Shown here one piece after another: positions 1 through 13,145 of a stretch of 64,000 nt of DNA (position 1 is the stretch's first letter; each line of letters opens with the position of its first letter). The stretch is taken from contig QPFY01000011.1 in assembly GCA_003665825.1 (NCBI GenBank), forward strand, positions 372,001 to 436,000. The letters are read 5' to 3'. The notes below the pieces were generated by a model, which saw nothing but the letters and a program-made list of their open reading frames with translations, was not told the DNA's origin and searched no databases. The stretch is from Microbotryum silenes-acaulis. Taxonomy: Eukaryota; Basidiomycota; Microbotryomycetes; Microbotryales; Microbotryaceae. Made by a program: the position numbers and the translations under genes.

Positions 1-511
1 GACCCTCTTGGAGGCGACGCAACCCACGAATCATGCTTTCGAATTCGAGCCGAATCCGATGATGCAGAATCAATACGGGATGCACTCGACCGGAACGATT
101 GCGACACCTCCGATCTTGCATGCCGATCCTGTGCAACTTGCTCATGCGTACCTTCACTTCGGAGGCGGTCCGGACCATCATCACCACCACCAAGCAAGCC
201 ACCTTCATCTCAACCATCGGTCCTCCCCACCGACCGGAACAAGAACAAGCACTCCACTTTCCTTCCCCTCCCCACCCTCCCTCACCCACCAAGTCTTCAT
301 CGACCACGCAGGCCCAACCACAACGACGACCGCCGAGGAGCTCATCTCCGCGGACCCGCTCCTCTCCTCCTCCATGATCCCAGCAGTGATGAATTGGGAT
401 CTATTGACGATGGGTATTGGGATCGGTTTGCCGAATGAGACGAGTCCGGGTTTGTCCGGTTCGGATTGGTTGTATTCGATGGATCTGTCGACTCATGCGG
501 GGGAGGGGTAG
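1..511 (+). CDS. C-terminal part of a probable transcription factor (5' end outside window)
   Basis: The frame is open from the left edge to the TAG ending at 511, so only the last ~169 residues are seen. The tail is low-complexity: a His run (HHHHH), Ser/Pro/Thr-rich stretches, and a short acidic/hydrophobic end containing NWDLLTMGIGIGLPNE. No DNA-binding domain is visible. Such a tail is typical of the activation region of fungal zinc-cluster or similar regulators, but that is inference from composition. Its neighbour 590 bp downstream on the same strand is a maltase-type alpha-glucosidase, an arrangement resembling MAL regulator/enzyme pairs. It could equally be an unrelated Ser/His-rich protein. 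Confidence 0.45.
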   Translation, partial: TLLEATQPTNHAFEFEPNPMMQNQYGMHSTGTIATPPILHADPVQLAHAYLHFGGGPDHHHHHQASHLHLNHRSSPPTGTRTSTPLSFPSPPSLTHQVFIDHAGPTTTTTAEELISADPLLSSSMIPAVMNWDLLTMGIGIGLPNETSPGLSGSDWLYSMDLSTHAGEG

Positions 512-1098
512 GGGGTGTCCTGAGCGCGTTAATTACTGATCGGATGGGTATCATTATGAGCTGCCTCTTAGGATGGTCTTCACTCTTGCGCTGTTGCTAT
601 AGTATGTTTTAAATTTCGTATAGTATGTTTCAAATTTCGAAAAGCTCAGAATGCATTCCATCAAGCTTTTGGACACTCTGACCCATCAGAGCAGGACACC
701 CACCCACCTGCACAAACGAGCTCATTTTGCTTTCCTCAGCGTCCTCGATATCATGAGAGGTCAAAGATCAAACTGATCTACTCTTACAACTGCACCAAAA
801 ACAAAGGATCGCTAAGACAAAAGTATGAGTTCACTGATTCACTAACCCAAACTGATAATTGGCTGAAGCCTGATGATGCTCAGATCGATAAACGGCCCCA
901 CGGCCCCCCGGCCCCGTCCCGGGGAATCTCACCCGCGATTTCGACACCGCCCATTTTGCGCATGGGCATACAAGTGGGGTTGACGTGCGGAGGTGATTGC
1001 TTAGCTAAGGGCGCTCTTGACGACGTCAGACTGCGGGTTGGTTGAGTTTCTTCCATCAACTACATCTACCTCTTGGTTAGCAAATAGCTTTGGACGGT
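512..1098 (+). promoter_or_regulatory. Intergenic region upstream of the alpha-glucosidase
   Basis: No coding signal. It holds the 3' flank of the upstream gene and the presumed promoter of the glucosidase. A GC-rich block at about 893-921 has repeated CCCC/GGGG cores (for example CCCCGTCCCGGGG). Cores of that kind are bound by Mig1/CreA-type glucose repressors in fungi, so carbon repression is a reasonable guess, not a demonstration. A short repeat, TATAGTATGTTT, occurs twice near 598-630. Confidence 0.3.
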
Positions 1099-3597
<2,499 letters not shown>

Positions 3598-4099
3598 AAG
3601 AGAGCAAGAAGAAGTAAAGAACAAGGAGGGGGGTTGCAAATCATCATCAAGAAAAGGAGAACAGCTTCCTCGCCGAGGATGGAGAGAGAAGCGTGGGCTA
3701 CACTGAGTCGGGAAAAGGGTCGTGAAACAAATGAGGCAAGCGAAGAGCAATAATGAGGCGAGAGCTAACATAAAGTGTTGAAAGAGCAAGTGAAGGCACC
3801 GCAAAAGATGGAGAGGTAAAGATTTGAGGGCACAAATATGGAAGTAATCGAAGAGCGGCGATCGAGGATGCAGTGAGGCGCTCCGGATCGGTTGGCGTCG
3901 GGTCGATTTGGTAAATGATCATTCGGAGTGATATACGACGTGGGCGGCACCCAACCTGTGGTGGCGTGAATGAAATGCGAAATTTGAGGTTGACGAGGAA
4001 ACAGACGAGATGTATATGGACGAATGCAAGAAGGTATGGGTGAGGTTGAAATGCGAAGGATGCGTGAGGGTGTCGAAGCGCGGGAGATTGAGCTGGTTA
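3598..4099. other. Intergenic space between convergent genes
   Basis: This 502-bp stretch separates the 3' ends of the alpha-glucosidase (plus) and the KH protein (minus). It is purine-rich on the plus strand just after the glucosidase stop (AAGAGAGCAAGAAGAAG). I see no gene, repeat or RNA in it. Confidence 0.6.
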
Positions 4100-7000
4100 T
4101 CAAAGGTCGAGGGACGAAACGGCACTTTCGACTTCATCGACGAACTCGTGCGACTGGTGAAATCCGCGTTCTTTGCGAAGCGGACCATGAAGACCAAGAT
4201 CGAAGGACTGAGCGAGACCGCGAGGTCGATGGTGACCCAAACCCGAGCGAGCACTCGCATGGCTGCTACCGCTGGCGATGGCACCAAAGCCGCCCGAAGC
4301 GCTCGCGGAAGGGCCATGCGAAATCTTGGGACCGACGTCGGAAGGGGAGGGGTGGTGACGTGCGACGGGGACCGCTGAACTGGTTGCACCCTCCGTTTGC
4401 GCGAAGCGAGACGCTGAAGACTTGGGGAATCCAGAGCCGGAGAACGCCGACGACGGACCTCCAAAGGTCGAGTTCGATGACGCGAATGGCGACGTTCGAG
4501 AGAGAGCACCCCAGCCGCGATGCGATGTCGTACTGCTGAACGAGGACGGGTTCGAACCGGGAGGGGGTGGCATACCTTGACCTTGCGATTGACTGGTCGG
4601 GAACGCCGACTCCGTGTTGGTCTGAAGTGACGAGGTCGGAGGGTAGAATCCAGGGTAGTCTTGGTTTGCAGAGCGGTATACGAACGAAGCCGCGTTACGA
4701 AGAGGTGACTGGCCAGGGGCGCCATACGTCGTGGTACTGGGTGCTTCAAAGATAGACTTGATGTTGGGCGACGAAGCCGCAAGGCGCAATTTGTGATCGA
4801 CGGTCGAGCTCAGATCTCTCACTGCATCGCTGCTCGAGGTGGCCAAGAGGTTGCTGTTAAAGAACGAGAACGAGTCGTTGAAAGCGTCGGGGCGAGGTCG
4901 CAACGAGCCGGGGTAAAGTTGGATCTTGCGCTGGACGAGGTACTCTTCGACCAGATCGCGAGCCGCAGGAAGGACCTCGATGTTGCTGCGATTGAGGTAG
5001 AAGCGGATGATCGTCTCGTCACTTGCACCCGAGCGGTCAACCCACGGCATGATCGCGACGTTGAAGTTGCGCTTGATGTGTTCCGTCAGCCCGACAAAGT
5101 CTTGCGAAAGAGTCAAGGCTGCCATCTCGGCGCTGTGGGGAATTCGGTACTCGCTTCGCCAGTCAAAGCAGGTCAAAGGTCAGCGCAAAGCTGGACACAT
5201 AGGCTCGACCAAATGGACTCACGCTTCGAAGGGCACATGGTCAAGAATCATCTTGGCCGCGATGTGAATTTGCGCCTCAGGTCCAAAGATCGAAACGACA
5301 TCGCTAGCCGTCTCCTTGTTCGGAAAACGGACCGTTGAGTTGGTTTTGGTCTCGATATCGTGTATGAAGATGCTCTTCTCGCCGAGGAGTGTTCGATGAT
5401 AGCGCCGCGGGATCGCCACCGTCTCCAGACAGAAATCCTTATCCTTGGGAGGGATCAACTCCATGACGGCTTGCTTGAGGTGCTCGAGGTTGAGCGCGTT
5501 CTTGGCCGGCGTACGCGCGATGACGTTGTCCTCGTTGTCGGCGTAGCCACCCAGAAGCGCAAATTCGTCGGCGTTGGAGAATTTAACATAGACACCGTAC
5601 TTTTTCATGATGCGCTGGATGTTCTTGCCGCCGACACCGATGATGCGCTTGTGATAGGCTTCGGGAACATGGAACGAAATCTCGGCCGGCAGCTCTTCTT
5701 GCAGCATCGTCAGGCCGTGCAAGGCCGAAACGTCATGACCGGCGATATCAATGAGGAAGTTGTAGTCGTTGAACGTCTCGAACTTGATCTTGACGTTGGC
5801 GGACTTCATGATCTTGTTCAACTTGCCGTTCTTCTTGCCCGAGATGAACTCGCGGTGCTCGTTCGCGAGCTCAATCTGGAAGCGAACCTCATGGTGGAAC
5901 TGCTGTAGGACCACAAAAAGCCGCCGAGTCAGCTAAGATCGCCGAATCAACTCTCAGCGTGCAGCTCACCTTCACAATGTCCGAGTCCAAGACAATCTGC
6001 ACGGCCGCTCGGACCTCGGATTCGAGACCGTGGAACTCGAAGCAGTTGCTCTTGAAGACGACTTCGGCGCCTGAAACCACGGCGATGTGACGGAGGAAAG
6101 GCTGGATCTGTGCCGGATTGAGGGCCGGAGGGGCCATGAAGGCGTCGAAGGTGATTGGAAGGAGCCAGAACGAAGCGACGTAGAATTCGCAAGCCTGTAC
6201 ACGTTCAAGTGGGTCTCGTGAGCGACTTGCCTCTCAGAAGTGAAGAGATTCCGAGAGCTCCTAGATGACTCACCAGGCCCATAATGGCGCGGATCGTGCG
6301 CTCGATGTGAACGCGGTGATCACCATACACCGAAATCATGCTCGCCTGACTGCCAATGGGAGGGAAGTTGATGAAGGTGCCGTTGTCGTGCATGATCTGC
6401 TTGAGGTCGTCTAGTCGAGCCGAGAGCATCCAGTCGACTTTGCGCGGCAAGATGGCTGTGTCACGCGAGATGACACACTTGCTCTGTGCGTAGCGGCGGC
6501 GCACGAAGAGTCAGCCTAGGGCATGCCGACATTGCGCACGATGAACATCGGGCGCCGAAGCAACAGACCTTGTGTATGGAGATTTGGAACAGCAGGTCGC
6601 GAGCTCGTTGCACGCCAAAAAACTCTCCAGTAATGTGGACAACGTTCTGCTTCATCAAGAGACTCGGCACCCTCTGACCAATGACACCCGACAACGACGT
6701 AGGGAAGTAGATGTTGGTCGCTGTTTCCTCCTGGATTTGTTGGATGACGCAGCGTCTACGACCGGCGATGATGTTGTGTAGCTTGTAATCGATCTCGCAC
6801 ATCTCATGGTGAAGTCCGCCCTGTATCATTGTCCATGTTGAAAAAGAGATCAATGAACTGATCACAGCTGCAGATGCGTTGGCTCAATACTCACCAGCTC
6901 ATCCAGAAGCACAAGCAGCTTCACCCTTGCATGCTCGACACTCTCGAAAGTGCCCGTGATGACGATCTCTACATTGCGCTCGGCTTCGAGGCCGAAGCTG

Positions 7001-8050
7001 ATGCTGTTGGCCGCGTGGCCAACGATAGCCAGGTGGGCACGGGTGACCGAGGCGATGTCGTCGAGTCGGCGTCGCATTTCGGGCTTGACGTTCTCCTTGC
7101 CATCGAGGACCTCGGAGCGCGGCACCTTGACGATCGACTTGCGCTGCGGTGAGAAAAAATCGAGGGGACTGTCAGCTCGAGAGAACTGCGAGGGTACAGC
7201 TTCATCGACAGTCATGACTCACTTTGAAGGGACTGTCTCGCAAGAGGTTGCCGCGTGCGCTCATGACGTGCTGATAATCACCACTGACGTGGAAGTTGTA
7301 CTTGCGGATCGCTGCATTCGTCGGATCCGCGAGCGCAGCAAGCGCTGGCCAAGATGGATTGTCCAATGGGGTGAAGGAGACGAGGCACTGGTTGGCGGTC
7401 ATCGCATCAACGCAGAGCTTTTGCATGGCTTCGTTCAGATCGGTCGAATTGGCTCGAGTCATCGAGAGTGCCGAAGAGGACGAGGCCGATCGAACAAGAC
7501 GGACCGAGCTCGAATCGCCGCAAGACGTGCCGAAGGGCCCGTTCGTCGCAGTTGTCTCTGTCAGAATCGATGAAGCTGCTGTCGAGCTCCTCCTCATCGA
7601 TGGGCCGCCTCCACCTTCGCTTGACGTTGACTCGGCCGCAGTGCCATCGGACGACGACGAGAGCGACGTGCGGGGGTTGTGCGACGACGAAGATTTGGAC
7701 AGGGAGGGCTGCGAGTTAGTTGGGAGCGGCCCACCGGGGCTGTCCTCGGAGAGAAGCGGCGATCTTTGCACGACGGAGCTGACAGTACGACGGTGTGACG
7801 CAGCACTGGTGTTGTTGGAGCTGGTCGGAAGTTGCGCGCGAGCCTGGGGGCCCCCGGTATGGTGATTCAAATCCGTATCGAATGAGGTCGACGGCGAATG
7901 CGACAGAATCTGCGCTTGGGCTTGGTGGTGGAGCCCCTGCTGGGGTAGATTGAAGCAGGTGGTGTAGATATCCTGTAGATTGAAAGGCGTTCTTCGAAGA
8001 TCAGTTGATGCCCTAGTCCGAGCCAGGCCCGGAGATCTTGACGCAGTCAT
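4100..8050 (-). CDS. Multi-KH-domain RNA-binding protein, 7 exons
   Basis: Exons (minus): 8050-7223, 7143-6895, 6820-6569, 6483-6274, 6194-5970, 5902-5223, 5132-4100; phases agree, giving 1158 residues. The first ~230 residues are Ser/Pro-rich and probably disordered. Exons 2 to 7 carry successive KH-like repeats; the clearest is in exon 6, with the GXXG-type loop in RIIGVGGKNIQRIMKKYG and another repeat ending in MPWVDRSGASDETIIRFYL. Several other repeats lack a clear GXXG loop and may be structural. The last ~220 residues are Ser/Gly/Pro-rich. Architecture recalls the fungal multi-KH family that includes yeast YLL032C and S. pombe Mug60; that family assignment is from memory and moderate. 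Start chosen as MTASRSPG at 8050, the last in-frame ATG before conserved-looking sequence; an upstream ATG at 8134 and a 5' UTR intron are possible. Confidence 0.85.
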
Positions 8051-10058
8051 GGAAGGGACGGACGCCTCCGACCAACCAACCGCACGCGGCCGGACGCGCT
8101 GCATGCCCCGCGGCACGCGCGCGTTGGCCTGCACACGCGCCTGCGCTCGGATAAGCGGTGACGACGTGAATCGGAGCTGTAAAATAAGGACTGACCATGA
8201 TGGCGGCGGCGGGTTGCCAGGAAGGATGCGGAATCAGGACGGCTACAACACTGGTATGGGTCCACGTCAACACAAGTGGGTGCTGGACGGGGTCGATATG
8301 GTCGGATGGCAAGGGGAGATGGAGTGCAGAGCCTATTTATAATCGGACGTTTGTCGAGGAAGGCGTCGTGCAATCGTCGTCGTCGTTGTCGTCGTGGCGT
8401 CGGTCGCACCGATCGAGTGCCGTGCGCCTAACGGAAAGGAGGTCGGATAGCTGCGCCGCACGGATCCGAAGCACTCGTTATGCACCTCGAGAAGAAGGAC
8501 CACACGATCGACCGCCTGCGAATGTAGCGCCGTTCTGAGTGCCCCCCTCTTTTGTGGTGTGGGGGTTCCTCAATCGGCCCCAGCGCAGCGGTCGAGTCGC
8601 TCAGGACCCTTCGAAGGCGGTCTCGGGTTGGCGCGTCGGCAGCCTGTGGCAGCTCGGTCGTCGGGCGTCGGTCGTCGGTCGTCGGTCGCACTCGCCGTCA
8701 CTGATGTCTTGTCGAACACGCCGGCAGGGAGCGAGATGACGACCAGACTGGGTCGAGAAGAAGCAAGGATCTTTGGTGCGGAGGGTATCACGGTCCGGCC
8801 GAGTTAGGGGAAGCAACACAGGGGGGTCGGGGGCAGAGTGCAAGTGATAGAATCACGAAGCGAGACACGAACCGTCGAAGCTCGAAGGAGCCCGCGCCGG
8901 GGCCGGGCGCCCAGGGCTAACTCATAATGCCGCATTTGGGTGCTCGATCAAACTTCCGTGCTAGCAATGTTGCATCGTTACAATCAGAATCAACTTGTCA
9001 GACTGATTTCCGACAGACTTCAGTACATGCTTGGTCGGTGACACAGGTTCAGGGCGCCCACTTGCCAGTAGTAGTCTCACAAAGGCTAATATAGTAGCGC
9101 TCGACGTTTTCCGATTCTTGGTCAGAGTTGTGCAAGTTCAAGTGGGGGTAAGACAGAAGGCTCGCGGACTTCGGGATCTGCTGAAATGACCATCAGTCTG
9201 ATGCACTCGCTACTCAAAGTATTATCGTATGCACTCATTGATCTCCTATCAATCCTTTTGATCCCAACTCTACACCAATTCATCACGTAGCGCTCCACGC
9301 ATATTGGCTCGGAGCCAAATATTTTTGAATTTTTGAGTTAGATCAGCCTCTCGGACGACGTGCATTGCATAGTTTCGACTCCACCATCGGATTGTAGCAA
9401 GCATTGAGTCGTCGCGATGTCGAGTAGGGTCTTGAGTTTGCAAGTCTCAATGAAATTGGGGCTACTATGTGGCGGAATTCTCGTTCAAACTCAGCTCACG
9501 TTGGTGCCGTCTCTCTCTCTCGAAGATGGAGTATGGTAGGTGACAAGGTTCAAAATGGCAACAACATCTGCACGATCTTTTTCCTAGTCGAGCATCGTTG
9601 AGCTGCGGAGCTGCGCATCTGTATCCGTTGCAAGGATTGCGAGTCGAGCAAACATGACTTGCTCACGCACAATTACTTTGTCGCCACAGAGCGCGGTCTG
9701 CCTGCCAGCTCGAGTCTTTTCTTGCCTTGGCGGGTGCGTTGCTGTTGTGCGCTGCCTTGCGCTCCCTCGCGCTCTCTTGCGCTGCGGTGGAGTGCGGTGG
9801 GGCCGTGTGAGGTGAGGTGACTCGCGCGGGCGGGGGCGTCGTCGGTTGCTTCCCCTCCACAACCCCCTTTCCTACCCAATAACTCTCCAACACAAAGTCA
9901 GTAGCTTCGCCCCGAGTATGTTAGCAGGGCTAATACAACCGACACTGACGTCCTGACTGCGCTGTATCGCCTGCGTCTGCTTTGGTGCGACGTCAACCCT
10001 CTACCCATCGCCGCGTTTCTGCTCCCCCTCCTCGCCTCCTCGCCTACCACGTCGACAG
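8051..10058. other. Two-kb intergenic region between divergent KH and RRM genes
   Basis: It must contain both promoters. Near the KH gene there are short GTC-type repeats: TCGTCGTCGTCGTTGTCGTCGT at about 8373-8396 and repeated GGTCGTC around 8656-8690. Toward the RRM gene, 9730-9800 has a loose repeat of TTGCGCTC/GCGCTCTC units. A CTCTCTCTCTC tract lies near 9510. No ORF here has the look of a gene, and no tRNA-like structure was recognised. Confidence 0.5.
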
Positions 10059-12419
10059 ATGTCTGCCAAGATCTGTGAGTCATCAGATGCAGCACCCGAT
10101 GGGATGGATCTGTACTGATCGTTTGGACGCCGGCTTGACGAGCTTGCAGACTGGTACGTGGTTCGATCTGCACCACTCGACCCGACCGCCACCACCCAAC
10201 CTTAGCCAGCTCCGGTGGCGCCAGCGCGACCAGCACGCATTCGTGGCACGGCGCCAGCTCGCACCCCAGTCGTCGCATTCTGACCATTTCATCACCCACC
10301 AACTCCAACATCGGACCTGTGTGACTGACTTGTTTTCTTGCTTTTCTCTGTCACCCTCTGTTGCTACTCCTTTTTCGTGCCACCAGCGGAAACCTCTCGT
10401 GGTAAGTGGTCGTTGGCTTTGGCTCTCGTCGTAGCTCTCTTGTGGCTGTGGTCACGGTCGCCTTTGTCCTGCGCCAATGCCGCGGGCCTGGCGCGCGAGT
10501 GTAAACTCCCGATTTTCACGCGCTGCGCTGCTGCGATGCGGGGGCCCTGACCCGGCAGCCAGCTAGCGCATCTTTCCAACGCGGCCGCGGTCTTGAACAG
10601 CAGCGGCTGACACTAGTTTTCGATCTTTGTCCTTTCTTTCAGGGGAACCAACACCGACTCGTTGCGTGATGCCTTCTCGCAATTCGGTCAGGTTCTCGAC
10701 TGCATCGTCATGACGTGAGTCTCTCCGGTCTCTAGCTGCCTAGTGCATGCTTGTGATCCAGTTATCCGTTCCTTTGTCCGACTTCACTGACGTTTCGGCT
10801 TTTATTCACTTTCACCTTGTTCAGCGAGCCCGGAACCGGTCGCTCGCGTGGTTTCGGCTTCGTCACCTTTGGCTCGCAAGCCGAGGCTGATGCCGCCATC
10901 GCCGCCATGCACGAGCAAGAGCTTGTGCGTACCTGTTTCCCGCCCCGCTCCTCTCCAGTACTGCACAGCAGCGCGGCCGTGGCTTCTGAGCACACATCTC
11001 GACTCCAAGTCCGGTTGAACGGGCACTCAAGATCTCGGCACCGGCACGGTGCGAGGTCCAAGGATAAGCCTAACCCTATCTGCGGCTCTCCACACTCCTG
11101 TTGACGCGGTGTGGTCACTGTCAGAAGCCCTAGCTGCGACCATGTCATACTCCCTCGCCATGTCCGTTCGGCACCGACGATGACGCCCGCGACGCGATCC
11201 CTAAACACCCGATCCCATGTTCTCGTGTTCCCGGTTTCCTGACTCTTCCTCGCGCTCTGCGTTCTCTCTCTCCTGTTCCTCTTCTGCCTTTCTGCATGTC
11301 TGTTGGATTCGCTTTCCCTTCGTTCTCGGATCGTGTCTGTGCCCGTGTGCCTTTCCCGCGCCTCGTAAACGTTTTCGCTTGCAAATTGCTTCGTTTACTT
11401 CGACTATCGTTCTGCACCTGTTCTGGGTTACTGATAATCACAGGGTAAGTCTTCCCTGCTCTTTTGCTTTGATCTCTGGCCCGAGCGGATGGCTGATACG
11501 GAACGGATACATTCTGCGCATCACAGACGGTCGACGCCTTCGCGTCAACATCGCCAACCAACGTGGTGGCGGAGGTGGAGGTGGAGGTGGAGGATGTGAG
11601 TAATATCTTTGCTCTTGCTCACTGTGCCGTCGTTGAGCGGGGCTCATGCGATACGTCCGGGTCGTGCTATAGACGGTGGGGGAGGATGTTAGTCACTCCC
11701 CTTTTATGACGCTCTTCATTGAGTTCTCATCGTTGTCGAGGAGGTCGCACGTTCGGCGGTCTGGTCTCGTCGCGCGGCCGCTCGAGATCTCGAATACCTG
11801 ATCTCGGGTGTTGAGCTCTGTTTTAAGTTCACATCGCTGACCGTACTCACTTCCTTGTTCGATCAATCTTAGACGGTGGCCAGGGTGGCGTGAGTGTTCA
11901 CGACACGTTCAGTTCACATCGGTGTATCAGCTAACCTCTTGCCCTTCCTACCCGACTTCACACAGTACGGTGGAGGAGGATGTAAGTCACCTTTGACACT
12001 AATGGCATCCTACCCGTCGTTGTCGGCAGACAAGCTTCGCTTTCCTGTTTCTGTCGAACACACGCGATTGCTCTGTGCTCGGGGCATTGGCTGACCTCGT
12101 AACTCGTCCTGGCTCCCACTAGACGGTGGAGGATACGGCCAACAGCAGGGTGGCTACGGCGGCCAGCAGTCCTACGGCTCGGGCGCCCCCTACGGCCAGC
12201 AATCTTACGGCCAAGGTGGCTACGGTGGCCAGCAAGGTTACGGCCAACAACAAGGTGGCTGTGAGTAGATGTTGTCTAGTTGATGCTTGATTCGCATTAC
12301 TGATGCCTGCCTGTCCCTCGTGCGATCGTATAGACGGTGGTGACGCCCAACAACCGGGCGGCTACGGCGCCCAGCAGGGCTACGGCGGCCAACCGGGCGG
12401 CCAGCAAGGCGGCTACTAG
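10059..12419 (+). CDS. Glycine-rich RRM RNA-binding protein, 12 exons with micro-exons
   Basis: Exons: 10059-10074, 10150-10153, 10387-10401, 10643-10714, 10825-10924, 11444, 11527-11595, 11673-11687, 11873-11889, 11966-11981, 12123-12260, 12334-12419. They total 549 nt, 182 residues. One RRM spans residues ~4-82: RNP2-like KIYCGNL, RNP1 RGFGFVTF, and the usual closing ELDGRRLRVNIAN. The C-terminal half is Gly/Tyr/Gln repeats (GGYGG, YGQQ). This is the layout of small stress- or cold-induced hnRNP-like proteins (CIRP, plant GRP7), which bind RNA and act in splicing, stability or condensates. Splice sites flank every exon. The 4-nt and 1-nt exons are required to keep the RRM in frame; without them RNP2 and the ELDG motif cannot be joined. 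The long introns around them suggest regulated splicing. Confidence 0.88.
10150..10153 (+). other. Four-nucleotide micro-exon (ACTG) of the RRM gene
   Basis: The string TTGCAG-ACTG-GTACGT gives an acceptor, four bases and a donor. It converts the split codon T of exon 1 into TAC (Tyr), and its last two bases TG join the C of exon 3 to make TGC (Cys), producing KIYCGNL, an RNP2-like strand. Direct joining of exon 1 to exon 3 shifts the frame. Confidence 0.7.
11444..11444 (+). other. Candidate single-nucleotide exon (G) of the RRM gene
   Basis: The sequence ATCACAG-G-GTAAGT sits 82 bp before exon 7. Exon 5 ends in phase 0 after CTT (Leu) at a GTGCGT donor, and exon 7 starts ACGGTCGACGC; one extra G is needed to read GAC-GGT-CGA (DGR) of the conserved ELDGRRLRV. 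A single-base exon supplies exactly that base and has good splice sites on both sides. Confidence 0.6.
11527..12419 (+). repeat. Tandem mini-exons encoding the Tyr-Gly repeat
   Basis: Exons 8, 9, 11 and 12 begin with ACGGTGG right after the acceptor and exon 10 with TACGGTGG. Exons 8, 9 and 10 are 15, 17 and 16 nt long and code for YGGGG, YGGQGG and YGGGG units. Exon 8 begins and ends in phase 1, as does the 9+10 pair, so each could be skipped with no frameshift. The pattern suggests past exon duplication with the introns retained. Confidence 0.75.
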
Positions 12420-13145
12420 AACAGCAACGTGCCGTAAATTTTCGTGCCTCATCTCGTTCTCTCGGATTGACTTGTCGTTCCCAATTGTATCGAAACACGT
12501 CTCCTAGTCGTGAGTTTTAGCCCCAAGCTCTTTGCGTGAGGAGCGCTTGATGTGGTGCTGATCGTGGGCCGCTCGGGTGATCAATCGCAGTCGTCTGCTT
12601 GCCTGGTCTCGTCTCGGTTCTCTTCATGCTCGATCACAAATGACCACCCCCTTCGATCTAGTCAATCTCTCGCTCGCCGCTCTGCTTCCCAAGGCTCGAA
12701 ATTACTTGTACCCTCTCTCGTCGCTTCGCTCTCGGTTCCTGATGATGCTTTCTCCAAAACCTCTCGTCTTCCCTTTGCATCTTCGCCCTCCTCTTCTGCT
12801 CCCCTCTCTACCGCCGATTTTATTCGCGTGTTTTGCACTTTCCAGTTGCTGTTTCGTTGTGTGGGGGACTTCTTTCTCTTCGGTTGGGCCAGTCTGGGTA
12901 GTCACCATCTTCCTCGTCTTGGTTTTTCGGAGTTTTCGCGGTCACTTGCCGTGATGGTTTTCGGGGAATGCAAAGAATAATTGGCCCTCTATATTCTGAA
13001 GCCCTATAGAGAGAGGGTAGAGGGAGTTTTGTGGGTCGACTCTTGGCAGTTTTTCGGGGAAGGCCGTGGCGCCTCTTGTCTCTCTCATTCACTCCGGCTT
13101 GCTCCACTCGAACTCGCCAGACTCAGCCCTCAGATATACCACAAG
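12420..13145 (+). other. Intergenic region between RRM gene and SRP54
   Basis: It holds the 3' UTR of the RRM gene and the promoter/5' UTR of SRP54, both on the plus strand. It is pyrimidine-rich (many CTCTC and TTCCTC blocks). Open frames here are low-complexity and not supported as genes. Confidence 0.5.

What the first reader, a model, noticed from the sequence alone, without database searches (positions are those of the whole stretch)
11444..11444. A single-nucleotide exon in the RRM gene
Exon 5 ends in phase 0 at GAGCTT, and exon 7 starts ACGGTCGACGC. The conserved RRM ending ELDGRRLRV needs exactly one G between them. The intron contains ATCACAG-G-GTAAGT, giving acceptor, one base and a consensus donor, followed by a normal 82-bp intron. 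No ordinary alternative donor or acceptor supplies the missing base. One-nucleotide exons are known only rarely, for example in Arabidopsis APC11.
Basis: partly seen in the sequence, partly recalled or inferred. Interest (0 to 1): 0.85.

Follow-up and report, generated by a model that had tools for sequence, protein, structure and literature searches.

The report
Single-nucleotide exon in fungal RNA-binding gene
A gene for an RNA-binding protein in an anther-smut-like fungus very probably contains an exon one letter long, and proteins of related yeasts suggest that this smallest possible exon is old and has been missed by gene annotation.

Summary
The gene is a glycine-rich RNA-binding protein with 12 coding exons (549 nt, 182 aa), in frame with the G at 11444 as a separate exon. 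That G lies between a good acceptor (TCACAG) and a consensus donor (GTAAGT) and is the only AG-N-GT in the 602-nt gap. It gives Asp in QEL-D-GRRLRV: 211 of 211 other listed homologs covering the site have no insertion there, 186 with Asp. The 10 listed proteins named as Microbotryomycetes all depart at exactly this junction by frameshift, run-off or insertion. Three metagenomic ORFs and the Sporobolomyces blumeae model are codon-compatible with AG|G|GTRNGT followed by a 70-98 nt intron, so the exon is probably shared by Microbotryales and Sporidiobolales. Precedents: plant APC11 and VPS55, Fusarium CYP621A. This is a new member of a very rare known kind, perhaps the first in Basidiomycota. No RNA evidence and no DNA of relatives could be examined here.

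The parts
10059..10074 (+). Coding exon 1 (16 nt, MSAKI + 1 nt)
   Evidence: Joined frame; same N-terminus in P0009/P0010
10150..10153 (+). Coding exon 2, 4-nt microexon ACTG
   Evidence: cag|ACTG|gtacgt; gives KIYCGNLSW, as in P0009/P0010
10387..10401 (+). Coding exon 3, 15-nt microexon
10643..10714 (+). Coding exon 4 (72 nt, part of the RRM)
10825..10924 (+). Coding exon 5 (100 nt, part of the RRM), ends QEL, phase 0
10925..11443 (+). Intron 5, 519 nt, donor GTGCGT, acceptor TCACAG; only CTNAY branch-like site near its end is 9 nt from the AG
11444..11444 (+). Exon 6: single-nucleotide exon G, first base of the Asp codon in QEL-D-GRRLRV
11445..11526 (+). Intron 6, 82 nt, donor GTAAGT, CTGAT with its A 30 nt from the last G, acceptor TCACAG
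11527..11595 (+). Coding exon 7 (69 nt, end of RRM and start of Gly-rich tail)
11673..11687 (+). Coding exon 8, 15-nt microexon of the tail
11873..11889 (+). Coding exon 9, 17-nt microexon of the tail
11966..11981 (+). Coding exon 10, 16-nt microexon of the tail
12123..12260 (+). Coding exon 11 (138 nt)
12334..12419 (+). Coding exon 12 (86 nt) with stop TAG
10925..10928 (+). Four bases that the rival donor (GTACCT at 10929) would add to exon 5
   Evidence: in frame, donor score -0.11, 1.7th percentile

Best explanation
Position 11444 is a constitutive single-nucleotide coding exon. The pre-mRNA carries a long intron (519 nt), one G, and a short intron (82 nt). Both introns have canonical GT-AG ends, and the G becomes the first base of the Asp codon just before the last conserved stretch (GRRLRV) of the RRM. 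Shown here: the sequence, the splice-site quality, the frame requirement and the protein-level comparative pattern. Inferred: the order of events. The two sites are one base apart, so I take splicing to be sequential. I think the short intron 6, with its strong sites, is usually removed first by intron definition, leaving a normal acceptor ATCACAG|GACGG for the long intron 5. The reverse order would rebuild a good donor CTTG|GTAAGT and is also possible. Removing intron 6 first would also protect against skipping, since it removes the direct exon 5 to exon 7 alternative. The arrangement (long intron, G, short intron) is probably inherited across the class Microbotryomycetes.
For: Frame and residue: 182-aa open frame with the G, frameshift without it; of 232 proteins returned (lists capped), 18 of Microbotryomycetes type were set aside (10 by name, 8 unnamed because they read into the introns), 3 do not cover the site, and 211 of the remaining 211 have no insertion between L and D; 186 have Asp, 17 His, 4 Glu, 4 others. 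Splice sites: acceptor 70.8th and donor 75.8th percentile of 236 introns predicted in 264 kb of this genome. Ab initio: exon 11444 and the 82-nt intron appear in the best path at 4 of 4 penalty settings, joined to exon 5 at 2 of 4; in runs over the whole 264 kb it appears in the last of 5 iterations as the only 1-nt exon among 282 introns, and in none of the first four. Pfam RRM score: 79.1 bits with the G, 73.0 with the +4 donor, 71.5 (match ends at residue 69) when skipped. Relatives: Microbotryum saponariae P0009 and M. silenes-dioicae P0010 carry the direct-join frameshift, ELTVDAF and ELMVDAF, which argues against a one-assembly error; the P0010 difference implies GAC to GAT, silent in the 1-nt-exon frame. 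The 8 listed proteins of Sporobolomyces, Rhodosporidiobolus and Rhodotorula also depart from DGRR right after EL. Of the 10 sequences that run into DGRR, 9 cannot end the preceding intron as AG|GAC and 8 fit YAG|AC. S. blumeae P0014 reads EL-GTS, compatible with a retained G|GTACGTC and a 72-nt intron 6. Read-through ORFs P0223, P0231 and P0232 each have exactly one YAG|G|GTRNGT-compatible place, 73, 82 and 101 nt from the Asp codon (85 here), i.e. introns of 70, 79 and 98 nt (82 here); shuffle fractions 0.054, 0.051 and 0.017.
Against: No RNA-seq or cDNA was available. The relatives' DNA could not be read, only proteins, so their splice sites are inferred through codon degeneracy, and annotated models may contain junction codons. 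Ten segments were scanned for the signature and 3 hit; the other 7 are spliced models or too short to reach it and show none. The 60-120 nt zone was set after seeing the hits; without it, 8% of shuffles reach 3 hits, with NAG in place of YAG 13%, and with any base between the sites 32%; the donor form of this window (GTRAGT) is compatible with none of them. Rhodotorula sphaerocarpa P0122 does not exclude an ordinary AG|GAC intron. The only CTNAY branch-like site near the end of intron 5 lies 9 nt from its last G, unusually close: 2 of 125 predicted introns with a CTRAY site are at 9 nt or less, median 26; the true branch site may be non-consensus and further upstream. The splice model was trained partly on this window (64 of 264 kb), splits this gene at 3 of 4 settings, and at 2 of 4 feeds exon 6 from a spurious exon at 11296-11334 instead of exon 5.
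Confidence: 0.91

Rival explanations
1. Single long intron with a donor 4 nt downstream (exon 5 to 10928, donor GTACCT, acceptor at 11527): in-frame protein with ELVHGRRLRV and no 1-nt exon.
For: It keeps the whole frame open with GT-AG ends. Pfam still recognises the RRM at 73.0 bits. The P0010 base change would be silent here too (CAC to CAT).
Against: Donor score -0.11 against 5.03 for GTGCGT, 1.7th percentile, GTACCT in 0 of 236 predicted donors. All 11 donors of the proposed gene model read GTNNGT. It adds a residue where 211 of 211 other listed homologs have none. In the 7 relatives that read EL-Val-Arg, the next codon is Pro, Leu or Phe, so a donor at +4 there would have a pyrimidine at its third base. 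It leaves the AG-G-GTAAGT unexplained.
Confidence: 0.04
2. Exon 6 is not used: exons 5 and 7 are joined directly, as in the deposited Microbotryum models, making a protein with a truncated RRM and an out-of-frame tail.
For: P0009 and P0010 read this way up to the tail. The shifted frame stays open to a stop at 12505, in the last coding exon continued into the 3' region (211 aa), so no early stop would mark it.
Against: It cuts off the end of the RRM match and shifts the Gly/Tyr-rich tail out of frame; the deposited models return to the Gly-rich frame further downstream.
Confidence: 0.02
3. Another cassette exon of length 3n+1 inside the gap restores the frame instead.
For: 14 others of up to 199 nt are formally possible.
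Against: The next best scores 5.59 against 11.5 and inserts extra residues (QRGH), where other listed homologs have none.
Confidence: 0.01
4. A one-base assembly error: the true genome reads CACAGGACGG and there is one ordinary intron.
For: A GG to G miscall would look like this.
Against: Two other deposited Microbotryum proteins show the same frameshift. Codon reading in 9 of 10 Sporidiobolales-type sequences excludes AG|GAC. It would leave the AG-G-GTAAGT (0.0023 expected per such intron) as coincidence.
Confidence: 0.01
5. The 1-nt exon is real and also a regulated frame switch: inclusion gives the full RRM protein, skipping gives a 211-aa isoform with a broken RRM and a different tail, possibly as autoregulation of an RNA-binding protein. 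Not exclusive of the best explanation.
For: The skipped frame is open for about 140 codons. Intron 5 is long (519 nt against a median of about 80 for predicted introns), and about 440 nt by my count in P0223. Autoregulated splicing of such proteins is known in plants (recalled).
Against: No isoform data. The open frame may simply follow from Gly-rich codon composition (not tested).
Confidence: 0.08

Closest known systems
Arabidopsis APC11 single-nucleotide exon (Guo and Liu 2015, PMC4674806; parts 1 and 2 of 3 read)
   Same: One-base constitutive exon in a gap annotated as one 422-nt intron, 333 nt after the upstream junction (long intron, base, short intron); needed for frame; missed by annotation
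   Different: Base is A; proved by cDNA and protoplast constructs; plants; unrelated gene
Plant VPS55 1-nt microexon (PMC8831610; passages read)
   Same: Deeply conserved 1-nt microexon missing from reference annotations; donor GTRAGT conserved
   Different: Supported by RNA-seq and RT-PCR; transcripts with and without it in some lineages; plants
Fusarium CYP621A single-nucleotide exon (Nelson and Syed 2026, PMC12940212; parts 1 and 2 of 3 read)
   Same: Fungal, AGGGT core (AG|G|GT), conserved protein motif needs exactly one base, most deposited models wrong there
   Different: Ascomycota, P450 gene, central base of a Gly codon, 139-nt intronic region in F. graminearum, 18 supporting SRA reads
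Placozoan mitochondrial cox1 single-base exon (PMC5436844; search listing and start of abstract only)
   Same: One-base exon
   Different: Mitochondrial; the abstract mentions trans-spliced cox1 introns
Recursive splice sites (zero-nucleotide exons, AG|GT; recalled, and discussed in PMC4674806)
   Same: Acceptor and donor back to back in a long intron, sequential splicing
   Different: Here one base lies between the sites and is needed in the coding frame

Membership tests
Nuclear single-nucleotide exons | One base flanked by a canonical acceptor AG and a canonical donor GT | tested here: met
   TCACAG|G|GTAAGT, 71st and 76th percentile of 236
Nuclear single-nucleotide exons | The base is required for the reading frame and restores a conserved motif | tested here: met
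   weaker in-frame alternatives exist
Nuclear single-nucleotide exons | Better than the alternative splice arrangements examined | tested here: met
   15 cassettes ranked, the +4 and +10 donors scored; GC-AG and AT-AC combinations were listed but not scored
Nuclear single-nucleotide exons | Conserved in orthologous loci at DNA level | tested here: inconclusive
Nuclear single-nucleotide exons | Transcript evidence (cDNA or RNA-seq) | not testable with these tools
   No reads held
Recursive splice site (zero-nt exon) | Acceptor AG directly followed by donor GT with no retained base | tested here: not met
   AG-G-GT, and the frame needs the base
Glycine-rich RNA-binding protein (one N-terminal RRM plus Gly-rich tail) | Single RRM_1 at the N-terminus | tested here: met
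   PF00076, 79.1 bits, residues 5-75 (first 88 residues scanned)
Glycine-rich RNA-binding protein (one N-terminal RRM plus Gly-rich tail) | Gly-rich C-terminal region | tested here: met
   translation: tail from about residue 83 is Gly/Tyr/Gln-rich

The most novel reading that the evidence does not exclude
An ancient fungal single-nucleotide exon: the long intron - G - short intron arrangement was present in the common ancestor of Microbotryales and Sporidiobolales and has been kept in an RNA-binding protein gene ever since. It would be the first single-nucleotide nuclear exon reported in Basidiomycota and could be followed in many species. A further, less likely extension is that skipping of the G is used as a frame-switching control of this RNA-binding protein.
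Probability: 0.75. Interest if true: 0.7.

Novelty: new member of a known kind. Interest (0 to 1): 0.6.

Why it matters
Single-nucleotide exons are the lower limit of what the spliceosome can splice, and I found only three nuclear cases described. This one lies in a gene for a small RNA-binding protein and appears to be shared within a class of fungi that includes genetically tractable yeasts such as Rhodotorula toruloides (tractability recalled). So the order of splicing, the role of the branch site and the reasons for keeping such an exon could be tested directly. It would also explain why the 10 listed proteins named from this class all depart from the family at the same place, and it argues for gene predictors that allow one-base exons where a frame is short by one at a conserved motif.

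Tried and rejected
Intron 6 as a copy of a repeated intron: an 87-nt genome search finds only itself. Paralogs with the same structure: of 23 matches in the genome, 2 are this gene; the other 21 have at most 47% identity and none looks like a close duplicate. RNA families in the window: none at gathering threshold. DNA of relatives: a genome-contig scan gave 3 bacterial loci (29-41% identity, two of the three matching almost only the low-complexity tail), not used; viral contigs gave none. Literature: eight searches of an open-licence library; judged from the listings, none of the papers concerns a nuclear 1-nt exon in Basidiomycota, Microbotryum or Rhodotorula. I read parts of two papers and passages of a third; the others, including two on fungal mitochondrial genomes that use the words single- or one-nucleotide exon (PMC12308204, PMC8208691) and one on Phanerochaete P450 genes (PMC1184071), were seen in listings only. 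A first unsupervised splice model over-predicted introns (908-922 in three of four rounds, G at +5 only 0.63) and was replaced. I considered the open frame of the skip product as evidence for regulation and set it aside as possibly composition (not tested). R. sphaerocarpa P0122 is ambiguous: its Glu before Asp fits AG|GAC or AAG|AC, so a single ordinary intron there is not excluded.
Full report
WHAT IS THERE. On the + strand, 10059-12419 encodes a glycine-rich RNA-binding protein in 12 coding exons of 16, 4, 15, 72, 100, 1, 69, 15, 17, 16, 138 and 86 nt. All 11 introns are GT-AG and all 11 donors read GTNNGT. The joined frame is 549 nt and gives 182 aa, with one RRM (PF00076, 79.1 bits) and a Gly/Tyr/Gln-rich tail. 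Exon 5 ends GAG CTT in phase 0. Exon 7 starts AC GGT CGA CGC. The single G at 11444, in ATCACAG-G-GTAAGT (11437-11450), supplies the first base of GAC and so gives QEL-D-GRRLRV. Without it the frame moves to ELTVDAFASTS and runs, without an early stop, to 12505 (211 aa).

IDENTITY. The best-matching Microbotryum proteins are from M. saponariae (P0009) and M. silenes-dioicae (P0010), 100% identical over 82% of the queried residues 1-84. The genome (29.85 Mb, 88 contigs, unnamed) is therefore probably from Microbotryum or a close relative. Microbotryales and Sporidiobolales are both orders of the class Microbotryomycetes. I looked up S. blumeae and M. silenes-dioicae; that Rhodotorula and Rhodosporidiobolus also belong to Sporidiobolales is recalled.

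IS IT CHANCE? I trained a simple gene model (frame-specific 4th-order coding model, donor and acceptor matrices, intron lengths) without supervision on 200 kb of fetched genome plus the window. In the last round 236 of 282 predicted introns passed the flank and length filters and gave the matrices: G at +5 0.86, YAG 0.89. The acceptor before 11444 scores 4.96 (70.8th percentile) and the donor after it 6.54 (75.8th). Two AG-G-GT sites of that quality, this one included, occur in 528,000 stranded nt, so 0.0023 are expected in a 602-nt intron; with the laxest thresholds and any middle base the figure is 0.076. The gap contains no other AG-N-GT at all. Genome-wide, YAGGGTRAGT occurs 155 times on both strands, against 267 for the reversed control. 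With no homology information the best path uses exon 11444 and the 82-nt intron at 4 of 4 penalty settings. It joins exon 6 to exon 5 at two of them (penalties 4 and 5); at the other two a spurious exon at 11296-11334 takes exon 5's place. In the runs over the whole 264 kb, the last of five iterations predicted exon 11444 as the only 1-nt exon and the first four predicted none. The model is not perfect on this gene: it is split at three of four penalties, other exons vary, and the window is part of the training set.

ALTERNATIVES. A donor 4 nt downstream (GTACCT at 10929) gives an in-frame ELVHGRRLRV, and other combinations exist. GTACCT scores -0.11 against 5.03 for GTGCGT and is the hexamer of 0 of 236 predicted donors. 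It lowers the RRM score from 79.1 to 73.0 bits and inserts a residue where 211 of 211 other listed homologs covering the site have none; 186 of the 211 have Asp, 17 His, 4 Glu and 4 something else. That count starts from 232 proteins (the best 120 of 284, the best 120 of 128, 10, overlapping). Three did not cover the site and 18 were set aside beforehand: 10 named as Microbotryomycetes, and 8 unnamed ones that I recognised because they read into the introns, so the set-aside is partly by outcome. Two unnamed proteins close to this class, P0013 and P0017, stayed in the count and read ELDGRR without interruption; whether they come from cDNA or from intronless genes is unknown. Of 15 stop-free, frame-restoring cassette exons in the gap, the 1-nt exon scores 11.5 and the next 5.59. 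A longer exon ending at 11444 in this frame meets TGA TAA at 11432-11437 (sequence).

RELATIVES. The 10 listed proteins named as Microbotryomycetes all depart from the family exactly after EL. P0009 and P0010 (Microbotryum) have the direct-join frameshift, ELTVDAF and ELMVDAF. Rhodotorula toruloides P0015 and Sporobolomyces carnicolor P0121 run off without DGRR. Sporobolomyces johnsonii P0012, S. blumeae P0014, S. ruberrimus P0016, Rhodosporidiobolus nylandii P0020, R. poonsookiae P0054 and Rhodotorula sphaerocarpa P0122 carry unrelated insertions of 15-68 residues before DGRR. P0010 implies ATGG instead of ACGG at the start of exon 7, i.e. GAC to GAT, silent if one base precedes it; the +4 rival would also be silent (CAC to CAT), so this does not tell the two apart.

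CODON-LEVEL READING OF THE RELATIVES. Seven sequences continue from EL with Val-Arg (GTNCGN, compatible with the donor GTGCGT seen here): P0015, P0122, P0124, P0223, P0224, P0225, P0227. Six others do not (P0012, P0014, P0016, P0020, P0054, P0121), as expected if their models splice there. Of ten sequences that run into DGRR, nine have a residue before Asp that cannot be NAG, so the intron before exon 7 does not end AG|GAC if the model is contiguous there; eight fit YAG|AC. P0020 (Arg) would need GAG|AC, and P0122 (Glu) is ambiguous. The S. blumeae insertion begins Gly-Thr-Ser, which fits a retained G|GTACGTC with a 72-nt intron 6; 95 of 2701 tripeptides in such sequences (3.5%) fit by chance. 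Of ten segments scanned, the three metagenomic ORFs that reach far enough back from exon 7 without a splice (P0223, P0231, P0232) each contain exactly one YAG|G|GTRNGT-compatible place, at 73, 82 and 101 nt from the Asp codon, against 85 nt here, i.e. introns of 70, 79 and 98 nt against 82. The other seven (spliced models, or too short) contain none. Shuffle fractions for a hit within 60-120 nt are 0.054, 0.051 and 0.017; I chose that zone after seeing the hits. Without it, 8% of shuffles of the ten segments reach three hits, 13% with NAG, and 32% reach the observed four with any middle base. All three fit GTRCGT (0.3% of shuffles reach three hits) and none fits GTRAGT. Each also has a CTRAY-compatible site whose C is 30, 30 and 41 nt before the Asp codon, against 33 here; no null was computed for that. 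Intron 5 is about 440 nt in P0223 by my count. I read this as one inherited arrangement: long intron, G, short intron. DNA of these species could not be obtained here, so this step is inference.

HOW IT MOST LIKELY WORKS. Shown: sites, frame, conserved residue. Inferred: sequential splicing, since an acceptor and a donor one base apart can hardly be occupied together. Intron 6 has a typical length (82 nt; median of predicted introns 81), a strong donor, a normally placed branch-like site (30 nt) and the better acceptor (91st percentile), so it is probably removed first by intron definition. That leaves ATCACAG|GACGG, an ordinary acceptor for the long intron 5, and it removes the competing exon 5 to exon 7 join. 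Guo and Liu (PMC4674806, parts 1 and 2 read) also favour intron definition combined with stepwise removal, and cite a potato invertase mini-exon whose second intron leaves first. A weak point is that the only CTNAY site near the end of intron 5 is 9 nt from its last G, where only 2 of 125 predicted introns with a CTRAY site are that close. Either a non-consensus branch site upstream is used, or this closeness is part of how the site is handled.

WHAT IS KNOWN. Nuclear one-base exons with transcript support: plant APC11 (PMC4674806) and VPS55 (PMC8831610, passages), and Fusarium CYP621A, described in 2026 as the first in a fungal gene (PMC12940212, parts 1 and 2), which has the same AGGGT core. 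I found none reported in Basidiomycota in the listings of eight searches of an open-licence library; papers outside it were not searched. The finding is a new member of this rare kind. What it would add is a case in a small RNA-binding protein gene, likely conserved across two orders, in organisms where it can be tested.

VERDICT.

Noticed in passing
window 10150-10153: A 4-nt microexon (ACTG) in the same gene, followed by a 15-nt exon at 10387-10401; S. carnicolor P0121 has an insertion between KIYC and GNLSW, suggesting that this junction is shared and also mis-annotated there.
   Followed up: partly
window 11673-12419: Tail begins with tiny exons (15, 17, 16 nt); exons 8, 9, 11 and 12 all start ACGGTGG (exon 10 TACGGTGG), mostly after a phase-1 T, as if one exon-intron unit had been duplicated.
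   Followed up: no
window 11430-11443: The branch-like CTGAT lies only 9 nt from the end of intron 5, much closer than in other predicted introns (median 26).
   Followed up: partly
window 11527-12505: If the 1-nt exon is skipped, the shifted frame stays open for about 140 codons through the whole tail, giving a 211-aa product without an early stop.
   Followed up: partly
P0009, P0010, P0012, P0014, P0015, P0016, P0020, P0054, P0121, P0122: These ten deposited proteins, all those named as Microbotryomycetes in the lists, depart from the family at the same junction and probably need correction.
   Followed up: yes
L030 4660-4666: The gene model predicts a 7-nt microexon here; not checked against homologs.
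   Followed up: no
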